Shown here piece by piece: positions 1-33,915 of a stretch of 33,915 nucleotides of DNA; the first letter of the stretch is position 1; each line of letters starts with the position of its first letter. This stretch comes from an uncultured Spirochaetales bacterium (GTDB taxonomy: Bacteria; Spirochaetota; Spirochaetia; Sphaerochaetales; Sphaerochaetaceae): contig CASDPA010000023.1 in assembly GCA_949282255.1 (NCBI GenBank), forward strand, positions 1 through 33,915. Direction: 5' to 3'. Below the pieces are notes generated by a model. It was not told the origin of the DNA and ran no database searches. It saw nothing but the letters and a program-made list of their open reading frames with translations. Position numbers and translations under genes: made by a program.

Positions 1-327
1 CTGGCTAAAATCCCCGTGAAGAATCCTTGGGAGATTTTTGCCTATCTGCCCTTTGGTGGCTGGAATGAATGTCCTAACACGCCGGAGTTAATGGCAGTTA
101 CGAAATATTGGTTTGAGCAACATGGGGCGATGCCCGCTGCTATGAGCCATGACGAATTGGAATTCCTACTTCCAGCTCCTGTTTCCGAGAAAGAGGCCAT
201 GTGGGTGGCGATGGAACTGTATGGCTTTTGCCCTGACGTGATTGACCAAGTGCAGGAGTATGGCACTGTGGGTGCTTTTGCCGATGTACTGAGGCAGTCT
301 ACTGTTTGGTATCTATGGTGGGATTAA
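1..327 (+). CDS. DUF4253-domain protein, 3' part only
   Basis: The reading frame is open from base 1 and its start lies outside the window. The visible ~108 residues look like the C-terminal part of DUF4253 proteins: a PWEIFAYLPFGGWNECP stretch, then MAVTKYWFEQHGA, then a tail ending VWYLWWD. The family is widespread in bacteria, often in accessory regions and next to polymorphic-toxin immunity genes, but its biochemical role is not established. A GTG at 16 could open a shorter frame, but the similarity continues upstream of it (LAKIPV), so I treat the gene as truncated by the window edge. The next recognisable feature is a decayed insertion sequence about 100 bases downstream. Confidence 0.75.
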   Translation: MAKIPVKNPWEIFAYLPFGGWNECPNTPELMAVTKYWFEQHGAMPAAMSHDELEFLLPAPVSEKEAMWVAMELYGFCPDVIDQVQEYGTVGAFADVLRQSTVWYLWWD

Positions 328-429
328 AGGAACTGTTAAAATGGCAATACAGTTGTATCTTCAAAGCAGAATGCAATTTCCAAGAGAGCTTGTAGAAAAA
401 AACTTGTAAAGTTTATTCGTGTAGGTGGC

Positions 430-770
430 GAGACGTGCAGCCACCGGAGCGGTGGGTTTAATACCCCGGTGCTTGCGCCGGGGAAGCCTGAACCCTAGAA
501 TTAGGGTGAAGGGCGGTGCCAGATGAAAGAAAAGAGCGGATACATACATTCAGTACACAACGTATCGAATCTCATATACCATTTCGTGTCGAGTGAGGGG
601 AAGAGCGGAAGTGAGAGCGTGATACGTCAATATGTAAAGAACCAGGGGAAGGAGAAGGAGTACAAACAGCTGTATCTCAACTTCCCCACACGAGAGGCGC
701 CGCTTTAGTAGGATACCGTGATGGCTCTGCCTCGCGGTGGTTCATTCAGGACTGAATTTCTGCTGAGGAT
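430..770 (+). mobile_element. Remnant of an IS200/IS605-type insertion sequence
   Basis: A decayed transposase frame (523-708) is flanked by small hairpins of the kind IS200/IS605 elements use as ends. On the left are CCACCG/CGGTGG at 441-455, CCCCGG/CCGGGG at 464-483 and CCCTA/TAGGG at 493-506. On the right is ATTCAG-GA-CTGAAT at 744-757, plus GAGGC (694-698) facing GCCTC (729-733). Elements of this family move as single strands, recognise such hairpins and make no target duplication, so the outer limits given are approximate. The copy cannot move on its own because the catalytic middle of the transposase is missing. It ends almost exactly where leader-repeat copy 1 begins. Confidence 0.65.
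523..708 (+). pseudogene. tnpA: Internally deleted IS200-family transposase (TnpA)
   Basis: The 61-residue frame joins two recognisable ends of an IS200 TnpA. The N-terminus (IHSVHNVSNLIYHFV) matches the family's opening strand. From about residue 30, SESVIRQYVKNQGKEKEYKQL matches the C-terminal helix, whose tyrosine is probably the nucleophile position. A full-length protein is about 140-155 residues. The missing part includes the HUH metal-binding motif, so no activity is expected. Both junction sides would read F-V-S in an intact protein, so deletion at a short internal homology is a reasonable inference. Confidence 0.7.
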
Positions 771-788
771 TTCTATGGTTTGCCAGTT

Positions 789-980
789 GGCTGGATGGTA
801 TGTCTTGGATGATAGAAGTGTCCTTTTTTTGATGCTATCCATGTCCCATAGATTGATATCACTGGTACGTTTTTGGGAAAAAATAGCTTATTCCTGACAT
901 AATATGGAAAATATGTAGAAAATAAGTACTTACAGGATAATAGGATATAAATGGGCTCAAAATGTCTTTTTGATTGCAAT
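789..980 (-). repeat. Leader repeat, copy 1 (pairs with 2269-2471)
   Basis: This stretch and 2269-2471 are direct copies of one sequence with scattered differences. Long identical blocks include a ~32-base block containing CTGACATAATATGG and ~23-base blocks around GATATCACTGGTACG and ATGGGCTCAAAATG. By analogy with copy 2, which sits just upstream of a minus-strand gene, it should be read on the minus strand. Here no gene follows: within a few bases the sequence turns into the insertion-sequence remnant. I read it as a leader whose gene was lost. A short frame in it (ending near 773) corresponds to the alternative GTG-started extension in copy 2. Confidence 0.7.
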
Positions 981-1015
981 ATAGGTGCGCTGCTTCATGC
1001 TTCGGGTGCCTCCTT

Positions 1016-1561
1016 TCACTTGATACGGTTTTGTCCGCTTTTCAGGTGTGCCTTGATGCTTTCGATTGTTTTAGGAACAGTCTGATTAGTTGTATCAATT
1101 ACATTTGCTTCGTATTTCCCTAAATCGCAGAACTGTTCCCACATGACTTCTACTAACTCGGTGTTAGTTTTCAAATCCAACTTCGACCGTTCCGCTGCGC
1201 GTCTCAGTGTTATTTCTCTGGAAGCTCGCAGCACAATGTAATGCACATCATATCCTTCGCGTGCTGCCCTCAGCCACGGCTCTAAAAACCACGGACCGAC
1301 AATCCCATCTACATACACATCGTAGCCGCCTCTGACAAATCGTTTTGCAGTCTCCAAAAACGCTTCAATCACCACACCGTTTTGTGCGTTTGACTCCGGC
1401 AAATGTGGAGGGATTGCACCTTTTTTGAGATAGTGAAAGAAATCATCTGTCCTAATACAAACGGACTTCTCCATATCCGATTCCATAGCCGTTTTATCAG
1501 CCACAGTGCTTTTACCCGTCCCGGGTGATCCGGTTATAATAGTGATTCTTCCGTGTGTCAT
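1016..1561 (-). CDS. P-loop kinase-like protein (AAA_33/zeta-like)
   Basis: This 181-residue protein has an early Walker A motif, GSPGTGKST (residues 11-19), after a hydrophobic strand. A TDDFFHYL segment near residue 38 fits a substrate-binding Asp, and an arginine-rich lid region follows (RASREITLRRAAERSK). This layout is that of small nucleotide or small-molecule kinases such as shikimate kinase, chloramphenicol phosphotransferase and zeta toxin. The substrate cannot be read from sequence. It starts with ATG at 1561, with AGAGG about 11 bases upstream. It lies 58 bases after the zinc-ribbon gene on the same strand, so the two may be cotranscribed. Leader copy 1 follows its stop. Confidence 0.7.
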   Translation of the reverse strand: MTHGRITIITGSPGTGKSTVADKTAMESDMEKSVCIRTDDFFHYLKKGAIPPHLPESNAQNGVVIEAFLETAKRFVRGGYDVYVDGIVGPWFLEPWLRAAREGYDVHYIVLRASREITLRRAAERSKLDLKTNTELVEVMWEQFCDLGKYEANVIDTTNQTVPKTIESIKAHLKSGQNRIK

Positions 1562-1619
1562 CTAATCAGCAACCTCTTGTTCCTGTTCAATCAATATTGT
1601 TCTTTACTATAATAAAGGC

Positions 1620-2249
1620 TTATTTTTTGTTTGGATTGATATTTCCTTTGGTTATAACGGTAACGGCAGTACCAACAACCATTACTGCGACGCCCAGCGT
1701 CGCTTTTCCAGCGTTTTTTATTTTCTGCGCCCGTTCGCTACGGCAGTGCTCGCAGTATTTATACTTGTACCCTTCCGGTAGCGGACGCTGACACTTTTTA
1801 TTTTTCAAAGTTTCTGGCTCATCTTTCTGTTCCTCCAAACACAGTGTAGGGCTATTGCTCGGCAACGCAAAGATTCGGTTCTCTATCTCGGGCAGCTTTT
1901 GCGTCCAATAATTTTCCGGTGACGGGTCAATCATGTCCAGCCTCTCAACGAATTCCTTTGTTTCAAGATAGGTTCTCTGGATGAACTTTGCGTAATACTC
2001 CAAACTTACCTTTGCCGCTTCGGTTTCTCCCATTTCCTGATATGCTATGGCTTCGGCAAGAGATACCATGTTTATGGCGCATAAGCTTTCTCGCAGTTCA
2101 TTCATCCGTGCATTTATCTTTTCAGGCGTTGCGCCGGATAAAATCTTGCCCCATGTAGACTCCGGCTGATTTTTAATAAACGCGGCATTTGCGCTTTGGC
2201 TCTGCATCAACAGATTGCGGCTGTTTTCGGCATCCGACACAAGCTGCAT
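1620..2249 (-). CDS. Zinc-ribbon/C-terminal membrane protein, unknown function
   Basis: The N-terminal ~140 residues are charged and probably helical (a STWGKILSGATPEKINARMNEL region). A small cysteine cluster with CEHC near the end (PEGYKYKYCEHCRSERAQK) precedes one hydrophobic segment (GVAVMVVGTAVTVI) and a short basic tail. I do not know a function. The frame extends to a GTG at 2342, but that extension lies largely within the repeated leader. An AAGGA sequence sits 9-10 bases before ATG 2249, so I take 2249 as start (209 residues); ATG 2258 is a further option. It is the first gene of a minus-strand pair with the P-loop kinase. Confidence 0.6.
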   Translation of the reverse strand: MQLVSDAENSRNLLMQSQSANAAFIKNQPESTWGKILSGATPEKINARMNELRESLCAINMVSLAEAIAYQEMGETEAAKVSLEYYAKFIQRTYLETKEFVERLDMIDPSPENYWTQKLPEIENRIFALPSNSPTLCLEEQKDEPETLKNKKCQRPLPEGYKYKYCEHCRSERAQKIKNAGKATLGVAVMVVGTAVTVITKGNINPNKK

Positions 2250-2268
2250 GAGAGCCATTTCCTTTTGA

Positions 2269-2471
2269 CTGGATGTTATGTCTTGGAAAGTGTAAATGTT
2301 CTTTTTTGATGATGATATCCATGTTCCCTCGATTGATATCACTGGTACGTTTTTGGTACGTTTTTAGAAAAAAATAGCTTATTTCTGACATAATATGGAA
2401 AATATGTAGAAAATAAATGCTTACAGAATAATAGGATAAAAATGGGCTCAAAATGTCTTTTTATGTTGCAT
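2269..2471 (-). repeat. Leader repeat, copy 2, upstream of the zinc-ribbon gene
   Basis: This is the second copy of the ~190-bp repeat at 789-980, in the same orientation. It differs from copy 1 by an 11-base tandem duplication (GGTACGTTTTT twice, about 2344-2365) and scattered substitutions. The similarity stops about 20 bases before the proposed start of the downstream gene, so the conserved unit is a 5' leader rather than coding sequence. I found no clear -35/-10 pair in it; TATTAT on the minus strand is the best -10 candidate. Confidence 0.7.
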
Positions 2472-2583
2472 TATGTTATTTTTTCTTATTGCATAGGAAT
2501 AAAAACATACAATGACAAAAATGGAACCCTGTTTCAAAATACATTAATATTGCTTTATAGTACAAGTAATTACCTTTTCTTTC

Positions 2584-2612
2584 TTGTCTATATCCATCCT
2601 TCATGATAAGAT
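2584..2612 (+). promoter_or_regulatory. Probable ppdK promoter (extended -10)
   Basis: TTGTCT (2584-2589), a 17-base spacer, then TAAGAT (2607-2612) preceded by TGA, an extended -10 pattern. Transcription would start near 2619, leaving a ~25-base leader with GAGG about 8 bases before the ATG. Confidence 0.6.
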
Positions 2613-2644
2613 GATTTGGATATAAAAGCTTTTGAGGTTTTTAA

Positions 2645-5353
2645 ATGAGTAAAACAGAAAAAAAGAAGTATGTGTATTTTTTTGGCGCTGGCAGTGCAGA
2701 AGGCAGCGCCGATATGAAAGCTCTTCTCGGAGGCAAGGGTGCCAATCTTGCCGATATGACCAGCATCGGACTTCCGGTACCTCCCGGATTCACGATCACG
2801 ACAGAGGCATGTGCATATTTTGACGCACATAACGGTGCTTACCCCGAAGGTATGCGGGACCAAGTGCTGGATAATCTTAAAAAACTTGAGAAAATGCAGG
2901 GAGCAAAACTCGGAGACAGGAAGAATCCGTTGCTTGTGTCCGTAAGAAGCGGTGCGGCCCAGAGTATGCCGGGTATGATGGATACCGTTTTGAATCTTGG
3001 TCTCAATCCAGATTCCCTTCAGGCCCTGATTGATAAGACCGGTAACGAGCGATTTGCCTGGGACAGCTATCGGAGATTCATTCAGATGTTCGGCGATGTT
3101 GTAATGGGAGTACCTCATTCAAAATTCGAATATGCGCTCCAGTCTGTAAAGGATGAGAACGGAAAACATTTTGATACCGAGCTTGATGTTGATAATCTTA
3201 AGGAAGTTATCAAGCGCTATAAGATCATCTACAAAAAGAGTACAGGCGAAGATTTCCCCACAGATCCTGAATATCAACTTTTCAAGACAATAGATGCGGT
3301 TTTCAGAAGCTGGAATAATGAAAGGGCGATCAAATACAGGCTCATGAATGACATTCGTGGGCTCCTTGGAACAGCTGTAAACGTCCAGTGCATGGTTTTT
3401 GGCAACATGGGCGATACAAGCGGAACAGGTGTTGCCTTTACCCGTGACCCCTCAACCGGTGAAAACGAGTTCTATGGTGAGTATTTGATGAATGCCCAGG
3501 GCGAGGATGTTGTTGCAGGAATCAGAACCCCTCAGACAATAGACACTCTCCGACAGGTCAATCCACAGGTCTATGAGCAGCTTTGCACAATCAGGACCAC
3601 GCTTGAGAAGCATTATAGAGATATGCAGGATCTTGAATTCACCATTCAGGAAGGCAAGCTTTACATGCTTCAGACCAGAAATGGTAAGAGGACGATTTTC
3701 AGCTGGCTCAGAAGCCAGGTCGAGATGGTGGAAGAGGGCTTGATTGATAAGAAGACCGCAGTAAGCAGGGTCCCTGCAGGCGAGTTCAATAAGCTCTTTG
3801 CCCCGATTCTTGACAACAAGGTCATCCGTGATCTCGGATGTAAGGAAGCCACGCATGGTCTCAATGCCAGTCCGGGAGGAGCCTGCGGTCAGATTTATTT
3901 CACTGCTAAGGAAGCGGAAGAAGCAGCTGCAGAAGGAAAGGATGTTCTTCTTGTTAGAGTTGAAACAAGCCCTGAGGACATCGGAGGAATGGCGGTTTCG
4001 CGAGGAATCGTCACTTGTCGCGGAGGCATGACCAGCCATGCTGCGGTTGTTGCCCGTGGAATGGGATGCCCCTGTGTCAGCGGCTGCGGTGAAATACATG
4101 TGGATGAGATAAAGAAGACTCTTGAAGTTGGAGGTATTCTTCTCAATGAAGGGGATTACATGTCCATCGACGGATTCACCGGTGCTGTATATGCTCAGAA
4201 GATTCCTGTAAAGCCAAGCGAAATCATGCAGGTTCTTGAGGGTTCGATGAGGGAATCTGAGTCCAAGCTCTTCCAGAATTATAAGAAATTCATGACATAT
4301 GTCGATGAAATAAAGACAATGGGTGTAAGGACTAATGCTGATACTCCTGCAGATGCCCGCCATGCTGTTCAGCTTGGTGCCGAAGGTGTTGGACTTTGCA
4401 GGACCGAACACATGTTCTTTGGTGGCCAGAGAATCATCTCGATGAGAAAGATGATCCTTGCAAACAACACAAAGGAACGTGAAGTTGCACTTGCAGAGCT
4501 TCTTCCGATGCAGAGAAGCGATTTTGCAGGAATATTCAAGGAACTCGGCGGCCTTCCTGTCACAATCAGGCTTCTCGATCCTCCTCTTCATGAGTTTTTG
4601 CCGAACGATCATACTTCGCGTCATGAGATGGCGCTTCAGCTTGGAATTTCTGCAGAGGAGATTGCACAGAAGATCAACAGCTTGCATGAATTCAATCCTA
4701 TGCTTGGTTTCCGAGGTTGCCGTCTTGCCATAATCTATCCTGAGATTCTGGAGATGCAGGTCAGGGCGATAATCGAGGCTGCAATCGACGTAAAGAGGCA
4801 GGGAGTGGATGTGCATCCTGAAATCATGATTCCTCTTGTAGGAATTTGGAAGGAGTTCCATTACTGCAAGGAGAAGGCTGAAGCCGTCATTGACAGGGTG
4901 TTCGAGGAACAGCATATGAAGGTAGAGTACAAGATCGGAACGATGATCGAAGTTCCTCGTGCCGCCATAACAGCTGATGAGATTGCAAGAGAAGCGGAGT
5001 TCTTCAGCTTCGGAACAAACGATCTGACACAGATGACATGCGGCTTCTCCCGCGATGACGCTGCATCTTTCTTAGGTCATTACGTGGGCGATCCCGACAA
5101 GCAGTTCTATGATTACGATCCGTTTGCGACAATAGATTTCGATGGCGTTGGAAAGCTTGTCAAGATGGCAGCCGAACTTGGCAGATCCTCCCGCCCGGAC
5201 ATTAAGCTTGGAATTTGCGGTGAGCATGGTGGAGATCCAAAGACAATTGCTTTCTGTCAGCAGGTAGGTCTCAATTACGTATCTTGTTCTCCGTTCAGAG
5301 TTCCTATCGCCCGTCTTGCTGCTGCTCAGGCAGCTATCGCGGGAGATAAGTAA
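2645..5353 (+). CDS. ppdK: Pyruvate, phosphate dikinase
   Basis: PPDK interconverts pyruvate + ATP + Pi and phosphoenolpyruvate + AMP + PPi; in anaerobes it often serves glycolysis or PEP supply. The 902 residues match the usual ~875-900. Visible in order are the N-terminal ATP-grasp domain (LLGGKGANLADM, SVRSGAAQSMPGMMDTVLNLG), the swivelling phosphohistidine domain with GGMTSHAAVVARGMGCPCVSG and catalytic His465, and the C-terminal TIM barrel with GLCRTEHMFF, FSFGTNDLTQ and GICGEHGGDP, whose Cys858 is the expected acid/base. Nothing is missing. The gene has its own promoter and a strong terminator, so it is probably monocistronic. Long open frames on the opposite strand are shadows. Confidence 0.97.
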   Translation: MSKTEKKKYVYFFGAGSAEGSADMKALLGGKGANLADMTSIGLPVPPGFTITTEACAYFDAHNGAYPEGMRDQVLDNLKKLEKMQGAKLGDRKNPLLVSVRSGAAQSMPGMMDTVLNLGLNPDSLQALIDKTGNERFAWDSYRRFIQMFGDVVMGVPHSKFEYALQSVKDENGKHFDTELDVDNLKEVIKRYKIIYKKSTGEDFPTDPEYQLFKTIDAVFRSWNNERAIKYRLMNDIRGLLGTAVNVQCMVFGNMGDTSGTGVAFTRDPSTGENEFYGEYLMNAQGEDVVAGIRTPQTIDTLRQVNPQVYEQLCTIRTTLEKHYRDMQDLEFTIQEGKLYMLQTRNGKRTIFSWLRSQVEMVEEGLIDKKTAVSRVPAGEFNKLFAPILDNKVIRDLGCKEATHGLNASPGGACGQIYFTAKEAEEAAAEGKDVLLVRVETSPEDIGGMAVSRGIVTCRGGMTSHAAVVARGMGCPCVSGCGEIHVDEIKKTLEVGGILLNEGDYMSIDGFTGAVYAQKIPVKPSEIMQVLEGSMRESESKLFQNYKKFMTYVDEIKTMGVRTNADTPADARHAVQLGAEGVGLCRTEHMFFGGQRIISMRKMILANNTKEREVALAELLPMQRSDFAGIFKELGGLPVTIRLLDPPLHEFLPNDHTSRHEMALQLGISAEEIAQKINSLHEFNPMLGFRGCRLAIIYPEILEMQVRAIIEAAIDVKRQGVDVHPEIMIPLVGIWKEFHYCKEKAEAVIDRVFEEQHMKVEYKIGTMIEVPRAAITADEIAREAEFFSFGTNDLTQMTCGFSRDDAASFLGHYVGDPDKQFYDYDPFATIDFDGVGKLVKMAAELGRSSRPDIKLGICGEHGGDPKTIAFCQQVGLNYVSCSPFRVPIARLAAAQAAIAGDK

Positions 5354-5378
5354 TCTTCAGGGTTTCTGAAAAAAAATG

Positions 5379-5411
5379 CAGCATGGTCCTAGCTGGCCAT
5401 GCTGTTTTTTT
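5379..5411 (+). terminator. Intrinsic terminator after ppdK
   Basis: CAGCATGG (5379-5386) pairs with CCATGCTG (5397-5404), followed by seven T. A run of A precedes the stem, so it could also work on the opposite strand. Confidence 0.9.
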
Positions 5412-5487
5412 GCATCTTGTTCAATCATCATTCCAAGATAATTACTAATACTTGTTGTTTATTGTTTTGGATGAATATTTATGATAC

Positions 5488-5516
5488 TTTTCAAAGCTAT
5501 TTCCATATTGTAGTAT
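5488..5516 (+). promoter_or_regulatory. Possible promoter of the DUF368 gene
   Basis: TTTTCA (5488-5493), 17 bases, TAGTAT (5511-5516). Each hexamer matches 4 of 6 consensus bases. Transcription would begin at about 5523, directly at the ATG (5524), and there is no Shine-Dalgarno sequence, so the message may be leaderless. Confidence 0.35.
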
Positions 5517-5523
5517 TTTGTTC

Positions 5524-6348
5524 ATGTTTAAAACGGTGGTAAAGGCTTTTGTTGTTGGATCTTCAATGATGGTTCCAGGTGTTTCTGGTGGATCGATGGC
5601 AATGATTTTAGGAATATACGACAGGCTGATCGATGCTGTGCCTGATTTGTTTGTAAAAAGCAAAAGAGCTGAAGCATTCAAGTTTCTTGCTGTATTCACA
5701 TTGTCAGCTCTTTTAGGAATCATTCTTGTTGCAAAACCTTTGGAGATGCTTATAACCCGCTATTCTCTGCAGATGAGTTATCTGTTTCTTGGAGCTGTGC
5801 TGGGTACAATACCGATGATGGTGAAGAAGGCAGGCAGCAAAGGATTCGATTTTATTTCACTTTTTTGGATTCTGCTGGGTGCAATAGTCGTTTTTTCAAT
5901 CGCATATATTCCTGAAGGACTTTTTCCCACAGAAGGGTCTTCGTCCATTTCAGGACTGCTTTTCCAGTTTCTTGGAGGAGTGCTTGTTTCAATAGGACTT
6001 GTACTGCCTGGAATATCCACAAGTTATCTATTGCTTGTGTTGGGGCTGTATGAGCCTATAATCAAAGCCCTCGACAGCTATGATTTCTTATTTTTGCTTC
6101 CTATTTCAATAGGTCTTATCGTCGGTATTTTAGCTCTTACAAAGCTTTTGCAGCTTGCGATGAGCAAGTATCCCAAGCCGTCATTTATGATGATTCTTGG
6201 CTTTTTGCTTGCCTCATTGAAAGAGATATATTCCGGATTTCCTTCCGGATTGATGATTTTACTCTGTCTGTTGCTGTTATCTGCAGGTTTCTATGTTGTA
6301 TACATGCTTTCAAAAGTGGAGGAGCAAGCAGATGCAAAAACACAGTAA
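5524..6348 (+). CDS. DUF368 family polytopic membrane protein
   Basis: This ~274-residue inner-membrane protein opens with the DUF368 signature: a short basic segment followed by MMVPGVSGGSMAMILGIYDRLI. A second related block near the middle (GLVLPGISTSYLLLVLGLYEPI) suggests an internal duplication of the PGxS motif, as is usual in this family. About eight hydrophobic segments are visible. DUF368 and related (DedA-like/PopT) proteins have been linked to recycling of undecaprenyl phosphate across the membrane; whether that applies here is inference. The ATG at 5524 is preferred over a TTG two codons upstream, but neither has a Shine-Dalgarno sequence. Confidence 0.88.
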   Translation: MFKTVVKAFVVGSSMMVPGVSGGSMAMILGIYDRLIDAVPDLFVKSKRAEAFKFLAVFTLSALLGIILVAKPLEMLITRYSLQMSYLFLGAVLGTIPMMVKKAGSKGFDFISLFWILLGAIVVFSIAYIPEGLFPTEGSSSISGLLFQFLGGVLVSIGLVLPGISTSYLLLVLGLYEPIIKALDSYDFLFLLPISIGLIVGILALTKLLQLAMSKYPKPSFMMILGFLLASLKEIYSGFPSGLMILLCLLLLSAGFYVVYMLSKVEEQADAKTQ

Positions 6349-32250: not shown

Positions 32251-32682
32251 ATGAAGAAAATTCTTTTTGTCTGCCATGGAAACATCTGCCGCTCAGCAAT
32301 GGCTGAATGCATGTTTTCACATAGGATCACACTATTGGGAAAAAAAGATTCTTATGAAGTTGACAGCGCGGCGACAAGCTGCGAAGAGATTGGAAACCCC
32401 ATATACCCTCCTGCACGACGTATGCTTGAGAAAATGGGCATTCCTGTGCTCAATCATCGTGCAAGAAGAATTACGGCTGAGGACATGGCTTATTATGATC
32501 TGATTGTATATATGGACCAGAATAATCTTAGAAACCTAAAAAGTATGTTCAAAATCAACCTAGAAAAACTTCGGCCAATGCTTTTTGAGTGTGATGTTGC
32601 CGATCCTTGGTATACAGGGAATTTTGATAAAACCTACCAGGATTTGGATAAAGGAATTTCACTGCTGCTTTCGATCATCTAG
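32251..32682 (+). CDS. Low-molecular-weight protein tyrosine phosphatase
   Basis: The 143 residues open with the phosphatase loop CHGNICRS (nucleophile Cys8, Arg14) and carry the general-acid Asp118 in DPW, followed by the conserved YTGNFDKTYQDL. In bacteria this family acts on tyrosine kinases that control polysaccharide export, or on phosphoarginine (YwlE type); the subtype cannot be settled here. The start lacks a Shine-Dalgarno sequence. It is the last chromosomal gene before the A+T-rich element, which begins about 25 bases after its stop. Confidence 0.92.
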   Translation: MKKILFVCHGNICRSAMAECMFSHRITLLGKKDSYEVDSAATSCEEIGNPIYPPARRMLEKMGIPVLNHRARRITAEDMAYYDLIVYMDQNNLRNLKSMFKINLEKLRPMLFECDVADPWYTGNFDKTYQDLDKGISLLLSII

Positions 32683-32708
32683 CCAAGCGGTTTAAAGGAA
32701 TTAATATT

Positions 32709-33344
32709 CTAATTGACAGAATATACATTATATCCATTTTCATCATCAGACCTAAACAACCGCTTATACTCATCAATTTTGTCATAATTCCCAGATACAG
32801 AAGTTTCATTGAGCAAAGCATTAATCAAAGGGATATATCTTTGGATAACACTACCAAAACGCATATAAAAAGCAGATATAGAACGACAGTTATCAAAAAG
32901 AATATATTCCAATATACGATTATCAGAAAAAGACTCAAACTGTAAACCTTTATCACCAAGCCAACTACGAATCGCATCAATATTATTACTCTGAATTAAA
33001 CTAGAATCATACTGTTTTTTCCCAGCCTTAATAGCAGATGCAGTAGCATGAAGGAGATAAGCAGTACAGTTAGAAAGAACATGAGCAGTTTCAACGTGAG
33101 CACCCCTAAAAGCCTTAGTTACAGACGTAAAAGTCCGAGCATTTTCAAAAGCCAACACAATATGATAATGCCACCCCTTACTAAGACCATCATCACCTTC
33201 AACAATTTCAGGTTCATGCTGAATATAACCATAAGTACAATTAGTTAAAGATTCACAAATAGAAGATACCGAAGGATAACATTCCGCACCCTCATTAACA
33301 CACAAAAACCAATTTCTTGAACGAGTATTATAATCTATTGCCAT
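32709..33344 (-). CDS. Rolling-circle replication initiator (HUH Rep, Rep_2/pMV158-like)
   Basis: This 211-residue HUH endonuclease nicks the plus-strand origin and stays bound to the 5' end through a tyrosine. Motif order fits Rep_2: NWFLCVNE at the start (about 11), the metal-binding HYH (His59, His61) in GWHYHIVLAFENARTF, and AYLLH (Tyr96, the probable nucleophile, and His99) followed by KKQYDSSLIQSNN, which closely resembles the YLTH...KxxY...NN pattern of plasmid Rep proteins. ATG 33344 is chosen because the longer start at 33395 adds only a Phe-rich stretch; neither has a Shine-Dalgarno sequence. The C-terminus (GYNVYSVN) is encoded by the dif-like sequence. Confidence 0.8.
   Translation of the reverse strand: MAIDYNTRSRNWFLCVNEGAECYPSVSSICESLTNCTYGYIQHEPEIVEGDDGLSKGWHYHIVLAFENARTFTSVTKAFRGAHVETAHVLSNCTAYLLHATASAIKAGKKQYDSSLIQSNNIDAIRSWLGDKGLQFESFSDNRILEYILFDNCRSISAFYMRFGSVIQRYIPLINALLNETSVSGNYDKIDEYKRLFRSDDENGYNVYSVN
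32711..32738 (-). other. dif-like (Xer recombination) sequence at the element edge
   Basis: Read on the minus strand, this 28-mer matches the E. coli dif site, as I remember it, at 20 of 28 positions. The match includes the whole TGTATA centre and a 12-base run, ATAATGTATATT. XerC/XerD-exploiting plasmids and filamentous phages integrate at such sites. Overlap with the last codons of rep and the local A+T richness weaken the case. Confidence 0.4.
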
Positions 33345-33388
33345 AAAAAAAATTTTAACACAAAAACAAAAAAAATTAAAATAAAAAA

Positions 33389-33453
33389 GTGTCATGAAAA
33401 AAAATCAAAATTGACACAAAAAACATGACACACCCTGTAACACTAGGGTGTGT
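33389..33453 (-). other. Candidate replication origin/terminator region before rep
   Basis: The gap between the two genes holds a strong hairpin, ACACACCCT (33428-33436) with AGGGTGTGT (33445-33453). It also holds TGACAC at 33412-33417 and 33426-33431, plus its inverse GTGTCA at 33389-33394. Iteron-like repeats next to a hairpin beside rep are typical of rolling-circle origins. On the minus strand the hairpin is followed within three bases by TTTTTT, so it could equally be a terminator for the upstream gene. I do not recognise a known nick site. Confidence 0.5.
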
Positions 33454-33460
33454 AAAATTT

Positions 33461-33703
33461 TCATTTACAAACCGGACGCCCACGTTTACCAATACGCCTT
33501 AATATAAAATCAGCAAAAAAAGAATCAATCAAATAAAAACGCCCATCATCCAAAAAGTAAACATCATCATGAAAATCAGGATATCGCCGAACATAAGCTT
33601 TTATAGCCTTTTCAGAAACACCAGCAAGACGAGCAAGACCACCTACAGTATAGTAACAACCATCCGGAAATACAGTACCATCAAAAGAATCAACTACTAA
33701 CAT
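33461..33703 (-). CDS. Small helix-turn-helix DNA-binding protein
   Basis: This 80-residue protein has a MerR/excisionase-like helix-turn-helix (YTVGGLARLAGVSEKAIKAYVRRYP, about residues 18-42) and a basic tail RIGKRGRPVCK whose RGRP resembles an AT-hook core. It is probably a transcriptional regulator, copy-number control protein or excisionase of the element. ATG 33703 has GGGGTGG about five bases upstream; a longer frame would overlap the previous gene. It is followed by the hairpin before rep. Confidence 0.7.
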   Translation of the reverse strand: MLVVDSFDGTVFPDGCYYTVGGLARLAGVSEKAIKAYVRRYPDFHDDVYFLDDGRFYLIDSFFADFILRRIGKRGRPVCK

Positions 33704-33716
33704 AATACCACCCCAA

Positions 33717-33914
33717 CTATTCAATAGAAACAATATAACCCAAATCATCAAATACAGCATTACGAGAAAAAACACCAATCAGAATATAACGCAAAAAACT
33801 AAGATTATTTTCACGAACACCAACAGCAACAACATCATCAGGACTATGCTCAAGAACATTCCTATAAGAACTAACCTCAGAATTATAATAAGCTATAAAT
33901 TCTTTTTTTTCTTT
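33717..33914 (-). CDS. 3' end of an unknown gene of the same element
   Basis: An open frame enters from beyond the window and stops at 33717, giving 65 residues: KEKKEFIAYYNSEVSSYRNV, then a VVAVGVRENNLSFLRYILIGVF segment, ending GYIVSIE. I do not recognise a family. In a 39-codon stretch, 34 codons end in T, a bias typical of ssDNA phage genes. The stop lies 13 bases before the start of the helix-turn-helix gene, so they are probably one operon. Confidence 0.65.
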   Translation of the reverse strand, partial: KEKKEFIAYYNSEVSSYRNVLEHSPDDVVAVGVRENNLSFLRYILIGVFSRNAVFDDLGYIVSIE

Positions 33915-33915
33915 A

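What the first reader, a model, noticed from the sequence alone, without database searches (positions are those of the whole stretch)
32690..33915. Rolling-circle replicon joined to a spirochaete-like chromosome
A Rep_2-like HUH initiator (His59/His61, Tyr96), a helix-turn-helix protein and a third gene form a minus-strand operon in A+T-rich DNA starting about 25 bases after a chromosomal phosphatase gene. Integrated rolling-circle elements are little described in this group of bacteria, and the rest of the element (coat, assembly or mobilisation genes) would decide whether it is phage or plasmid.
Basis: partly seen in the sequence, partly recalled or inferred. Interest (0 to 1): 0.72.

Follow-up and report, generated by a model that had tools for sequence, protein, structure and literature searches.

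The report
Rolling-circle element in the dif site
A small foreign replicon that copies itself by rolling circle appears to have slipped into the site this bacterium uses to separate its daughter chromosomes, using the host's own recombination enzymes; only its first 1.2 kb survive in the assembly, so plasmid or phage cannot be told.

Summary
A 211-aa HUH initiator (His59/His61, Tyr96; Pfam PF01719 above cut-off), a small HTH gene and an incomplete third ORF lie on the minus strand at the contig's end. The key point was missed: the boundary is the chromosomal dif site (32711-32738), the 28-bp target of XerC/XerD. This motif occurs once in each of 40 of 48 genomes of the genus (none for the reversed control), its variation sits mainly in the central hexamer, and GC skew changes sign around it. 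The closest relative, G044, has the empty site: phosphatase-dif-lipoprotein-rpsA. In this genome the two halves are on two contigs, C23 (the window) and C41, so a foreign insertion lies between them. No other of 395 genomes of the class has a PF01719 match. Best reading: an integrative mobile element exploiting Xer (IMEX) with a pE194/pMV158-like Rep, inserted at dif by host XerCD; the last nine Rep codons and stop overlap dif. Most of the element and its second junction are unassembled, so plasmid versus filamentous phage stays open. In a sister genome a microvirus replication gene sits beside the same dif, an independent second case. New member of a known kind.

The parts
32251..32682 (+). 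host low-molecular-weight phosphatase gene, left chromosomal flank
   Evidence: PF01451 E 6.7e-29; 91% identical and collinear in G044
32711..32738 (+). dif site = left attachment junction: XerD arm 32711-32721, central hexamer 32722-32727, XerC arm 32728-32738 (arms assigned by likeness to E. coli dif)
   Evidence: one copy in each of 40 of 48 genomes, none for the reversed control; conservation profile over 30 sites; GC skew changes sign around it
32709..33344 (-). rep: HUH rolling-circle initiator, 211 aa, nuclease domain only; last nine codons and stop overlap dif
   Evidence: PF01719 above cut-off; invariant H59, H61, Y96, K109; 38% identity to the pRGF00066 Rep over residues 2-131, E 1e-19; codons at the 3' end
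33428..33453 (.). 9-bp perfect hairpin ACACACCCT-8-AGGGTGTGT: candidate replication origin, also terminator-like for the HTH gene
   Evidence: fold z about -4; same stem word in plasmid pRGF00066, 0 of 300 shuffles; terminator-like scan hit
33389..33431 (.). 8-bp perfect inverted repeat GTGTCATG/CATGACAC beside the hairpin, possible Rep or regulator binding site
33461..33703 (-). small HTH protein (80 aa), probable regulator of rep
   Evidence: weak MerR_1 match E 0.017; no relative in plasmids, phages, viral contigs or the genus
33717..33914 (-). incomplete third ORF of the element, cut by the contig end
   Evidence: the ORF listing with open ends; no Pfam or PHROGs match

Best explanation
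The feature is the left end of an integrative mobile element exploiting Xer (IMEX): a small rolling-circle replicon with a pE194/pMV158-like Rep, inserted in the host's dif site. Inferred cycle: the free circle carries a dif-like site at the 3' end of rep; host XerC/XerD recombine it with chromosomal dif; the junction keeps the XerD arm and centre from the chromosome and the XerC arm from the element, so a full dif remains and Rep keeps its stop codon. When excised or copied out, Rep nicks the origin, perhaps at the hairpin 33428-33453, with Tyr96 and starts rolling-circle replication; the HTH protein probably represses or tunes rep. Shown: the Rep family and catalytic residues, the dif site, the empty site in a relative, foreign DNA beginning at dif, Xer genes in the genome. 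Inferred: recombination by XerCD, the circular form, the role of the hairpin and of the HTH protein.
For: Collinearity with G044 runs through the phosphatase gene and stops at 32733, inside the XerC arm of dif. The motif occurs once per genome in 40 of 48 genomes, none for the reversed control. Of the core 32713-32733 only 32725-32726, in the central hexamer, vary. GC skew is positive left of dif and negative right of it in most of nine other genomes with both flanks; C23 has the positive side and C41 the negative. G044's right flank (lipoprotein, TPR, rpsA, cmk) is C41 in this genome, ending about 82 bases short of dif. Two Xer-type recombinases are encoded on C12, near ftsZ and hslU. PF01719 matches in 1 of 395 genomes of the class. 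In G001 a microvirus replication gene lies on the same side of the same dif. The Rep has the YLxH signature and no helicase domain, as described for pE194/pMV158-like Reps (PMC6668415).
Against: The second attachment site and the rest of the element are not in the assembly, and no reads were available, so integration is seen from one side only. A free plasmid that carries dif could in principle be joined to the chromosome at the shared 28 bp by an assembler. The two Xer proteins score just under the NCBIfam equivalog cut-offs.
Confidence: 0.85

Rival explanations
1. The element is specifically a small pE194/pMV158-like plasmid that carries a dif site and integrates passively (a narrower form of the best explanation).
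For: Best Rep match is a 2,003-bp circular plasmid from a rat caecum (38% over 130 aa, E 1e-19), which shares the hairpin stem. A small gene upstream of rep also occurs in the related plasmids pLA106 and pNY13320-5.
Against: Chromosomal dif integration is best known for ssDNA phages; the rest of the gene content is unseen.
Confidence: 0.5
2. The element is a filamentous phage (inovirus) prophage at dif, as CTXphi is in Vibrio (the other narrower form of the best explanation).
For: Inovirus genomes from rodent, lemur and pig gut carry PF01719-type Reps related to pRGF00066 (44 phage records), one of them weakly to this Rep (E 5e-3). Filamentous phages often use XerCD/dif (PMC7307601). Inovirus rep modules are exchanged with plasmids (PMC6668415).
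Against: Rep is much closer to the plasmid Rep than to any inovirus Rep; no Zot, coat or assembly gene is seen in the 1.2 kb available.
Confidence: 0.35
3. Assembly or binning chimera: an unrelated plasmid or phage fragment joined to the chromosome contig by error.
For: The contig ends inside the element, the continuation C41 is a separate contig, and only one junction is seen.
Against: The join falls inside a Xer site, the one place where such elements insert; an independent element sits at dif in G001.
Confidence: 0.1
4. The hairpin 33428-33453 is a transcription terminator of the HTH gene and not an origin.
For: It lies 7 bases after the HTH stop codon and is followed by T-rich sequence on the minus strand; the pRGF00066 hairpin also follows a gene and is followed by a T run (sequence).
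Against: The stem sequence itself is shared with pRGF00066 (0 of 300 shuffles), which a terminator would not need.
Confidence: 0.4

Closest known systems
IMEX / dif-integrating filamentous phages such as CTXphi and UPphi
   Same: no integrase gene seen so far, insertion at chromosomal dif, rolling-circle replication
   Different: PF01719-type Rep instead of their Reps (from memory); no phage gene seen; different host group
Gokushovirus prophages at dif in enterobacteria (PMC7062461)
   Same: small rolling-circle replicon inserted on one side of an intact host dif
   Different: microvirus Rep is a different HUH family; dif lies mostly in non-coding DNA there, at the 3' end of rep here
pE194/pMV158-like rolling-circle plasmids; nearest sequence pRGF00066 (HG796802)
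   Same: nuclease-only Rep of about 210 aa with HUH and YLxH motifs; shared hairpin stem
   Different: those compared are free circular plasmids; this one is joined to a chromosome at dif, and its small HTH gene has no relative in the plasmid collection

Membership tests
PF01719 / pE194/pMV158-like Rep | family profile above curated cut-off | tested here: met
   34.7 bits against 24.6
PF01719 / pE194/pMV158-like Rep | HUH motif and catalytic Tyr in YLxH | tested here: met
   H59-Y-H61 and Y96-L-L-H99 in alignment A1; signature described in PMC6668415
PF01719 / pE194/pMV158-like Rep | nuclease domain only, no superfamily 3 helicase | tested here: met
   211 aa, no helicase match, whereas the bajarodino virus 75 and Lactococcus Reps show one
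PF01719 / pE194/pMV158-like Rep | origin hairpin with nick site | tested here: inconclusive
   hairpin shared with pRGF00066, but also terminator-like; nick site not tested
IMEX (Xer-exploiting element) | junction lies in the chromosomal dif | tested here: met
IMEX (Xer-exploiting element) | host encodes XerC/XerD | tested here: met
   two Xer-type recombinases on C12; top models XerD and XerC, scores slightly under equivalog cut-offs
IMEX (Xer-exploiting element) | empty site known in a relative | tested here: met
   G044 has phosphatase-dif-lipoprotein; the halves are C23 and C41 here
IMEX (Xer-exploiting element) | second dif-like site at the other end; circular form | not testable with these tools
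   contig ends inside the element; no reads
Inoviridae | Zot/pI morphogenesis ATPase and small coat genes | not testable with these tools
   only 1.2 kb of the element is assembled; none in that part nor apparent among the larger ORFs of the ten smallest contigs

The most novel reading that the evidence does not exclude
This is the end of a filamentous or other ssDNA phage that lysogenises spirochaete-like bacteria through dif. Together with the microvirus gene at the same site in G001, it would make dif a general landing site for ssDNA phages in this group, where earlier surveys (PMC6813254, PMC9239249) had only contigs without host flanks or single contigs in fragmented metagenomic genomes.
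Probability: 0.35. Interest if true: 0.65.

Novelty: new member of a known kind. Interest (0 to 1): 0.5.

Why it matters
Surveys of inoviruses and microviruses could not link either group firmly to spirochaetes, for want of host-flanked contigs (PMC6813254, PMC9239249). Here two different rolling-circle replication genes lie directly beside a mapped dif on chromosomal contigs of one genus. The genus-wide dif sequence found here is a ready probe for finding such elements and their circular forms, and could help to build laboratory integration vectors for bacteria with few genetic tools.

Tried and rejected
Closer Rep relatives in viral contigs and in one genome per species: none by peptide patterns, from the protein or from an alignment; the nine-member alignment was too diverse to search with. 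Structure prediction from the single sequence failed (pLDDT 39) and was not used. No PDB chain matches the Rep by sequence. Exact dif pattern in viral contigs: none. Rest of the element in the ten smallest contigs: not found; large ORFs read by eye only. Second dif in this genome with up to 3 mismatches: none, as expected if that end is unassembled. The G039 match at E 7.8e-5 covers only the C-terminal half inside a 579-aa frame and has no PF01719 match; set aside as probably chance. The third ORF does not resemble the second gene of pRGF00066. Considered and dropped: ordinary chromosomal genes, because G044 lacks them and the family is otherwise absent from the class.

Full report
Observation. 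The minus-strand genes are present. rep runs 33344 to 32709 (211 aa), matches PF01719 Rep_OBD above its cut-off, and its HUH histidines and tyrosine are invariant in an alignment with eight plasmid and phage Reps. The next gene upstream is a small HTH protein (33461-33703), then an ORF cut by the contig end. The contig is exactly the window: C23, 33,915 bases.

The junction. Comparison with the closest relative, G044, shows 86% DNA identity through two chromosomal genes and the phosphatase gene, continuing 51 bases past its stop codon to 32733. The last part is a motif that occurs once in each of 40 of 48 genomes of the genus and never in the reversed-sequence control. Over 30 other sites, 32713-32733 is invariant except two positions in the central hexamer. 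It resembles E. coli dif read on the other strand (from memory). In ten genomes with enough flank, and in this one, GC skew falls from positive to about zero or negative around the site, as expected for the terminus; the cumulative maximum lies 1-4 kb left of it. So 32711-32738 is taken as the chromosomal dif.

The empty site. In G044 dif is followed by a lipoprotein gene, a TPR gene, rpsA and cmk (gene names read from the translations). In this genome those genes are on contig C41, which ends about 82 bases short of dif. The insertion therefore lies between C23 and C41; its far end is missing from the assembly, and none of the ten smallest contigs appears to carry it. No second dif is found.

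The element is foreign. PF01719 matches in only 1 of 395 genomes of the class, and the element is A+T-rich. Its nearest relative by Rep is pRGF00066, a 2-kb circular plasmid, by its name one of the rat caecum metamobilome set (PMC3913684; from memory). Both have a hairpin with the stem word ACACACC, which may be the replication origin or a terminator.

Mechanism. Two Xer-type recombinases are encoded on C12, in contexts with ftsZ and hslU. XerC-first recombination at dif would leave a junction with the XerD arm and centre from the chromosome and the XerC arm from the element, which fits the sequence: G044 has TTATATATATA where the window has TTATATCCATT. The last codons of rep (GGA TAT AAT GTA TAT TCT GTC AAT TAG) overlap dif. 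dif inside phage ORFs has precedent in Vibrio and Xanthomonas (PMC3025954).

A second element at the same site. In G001 a gene matching the microvirus replication initiator family (phrog_942, E 1.4e-84; gokushovirus-type VP4) lies about 490 bases from dif on the same side, on a 60-kb chromosomal contig that also breaks inside the element.

Limits. The host's taxonomy was not tested separately. Without reads, a chimera cannot be fully excluded. Plasmid or phage is open. The literature searches covered only the open-access library held here and gave no report of dif-integrated elements in spirochaetes; this is absence of evidence in that library only.

Noticed in passing
L082 (G001:C15) 4304-5835: Microvirus (gokushovirus-type) replication initiator gene beside the dif of another genome of the genus, on a chromosomal contig that ends inside the element.
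   Followed up: partly
L092 (G000:C51) 1-4401: Several type I restriction specificity (HsdS-like) gene segments in opposite orientations sharing the start SSSNGLEKRPKLRFPGFDEPW, which looks like a phase-variable locus.
   Followed up: no
L070 (G024:C99), about 0.3-1.5 kb right of dif: Two minus-strand ORFs right of dif, the first (201 aa) recalling RloB-like proteins by eye; possible defence genes at the terminus.
   Followed up: no
L083 (G000:C42) 1967-2509: A tyrosine recombinase match interrupted by one TAG codon, so a possible pseudogene or recoded integrase.
   Followed up: no
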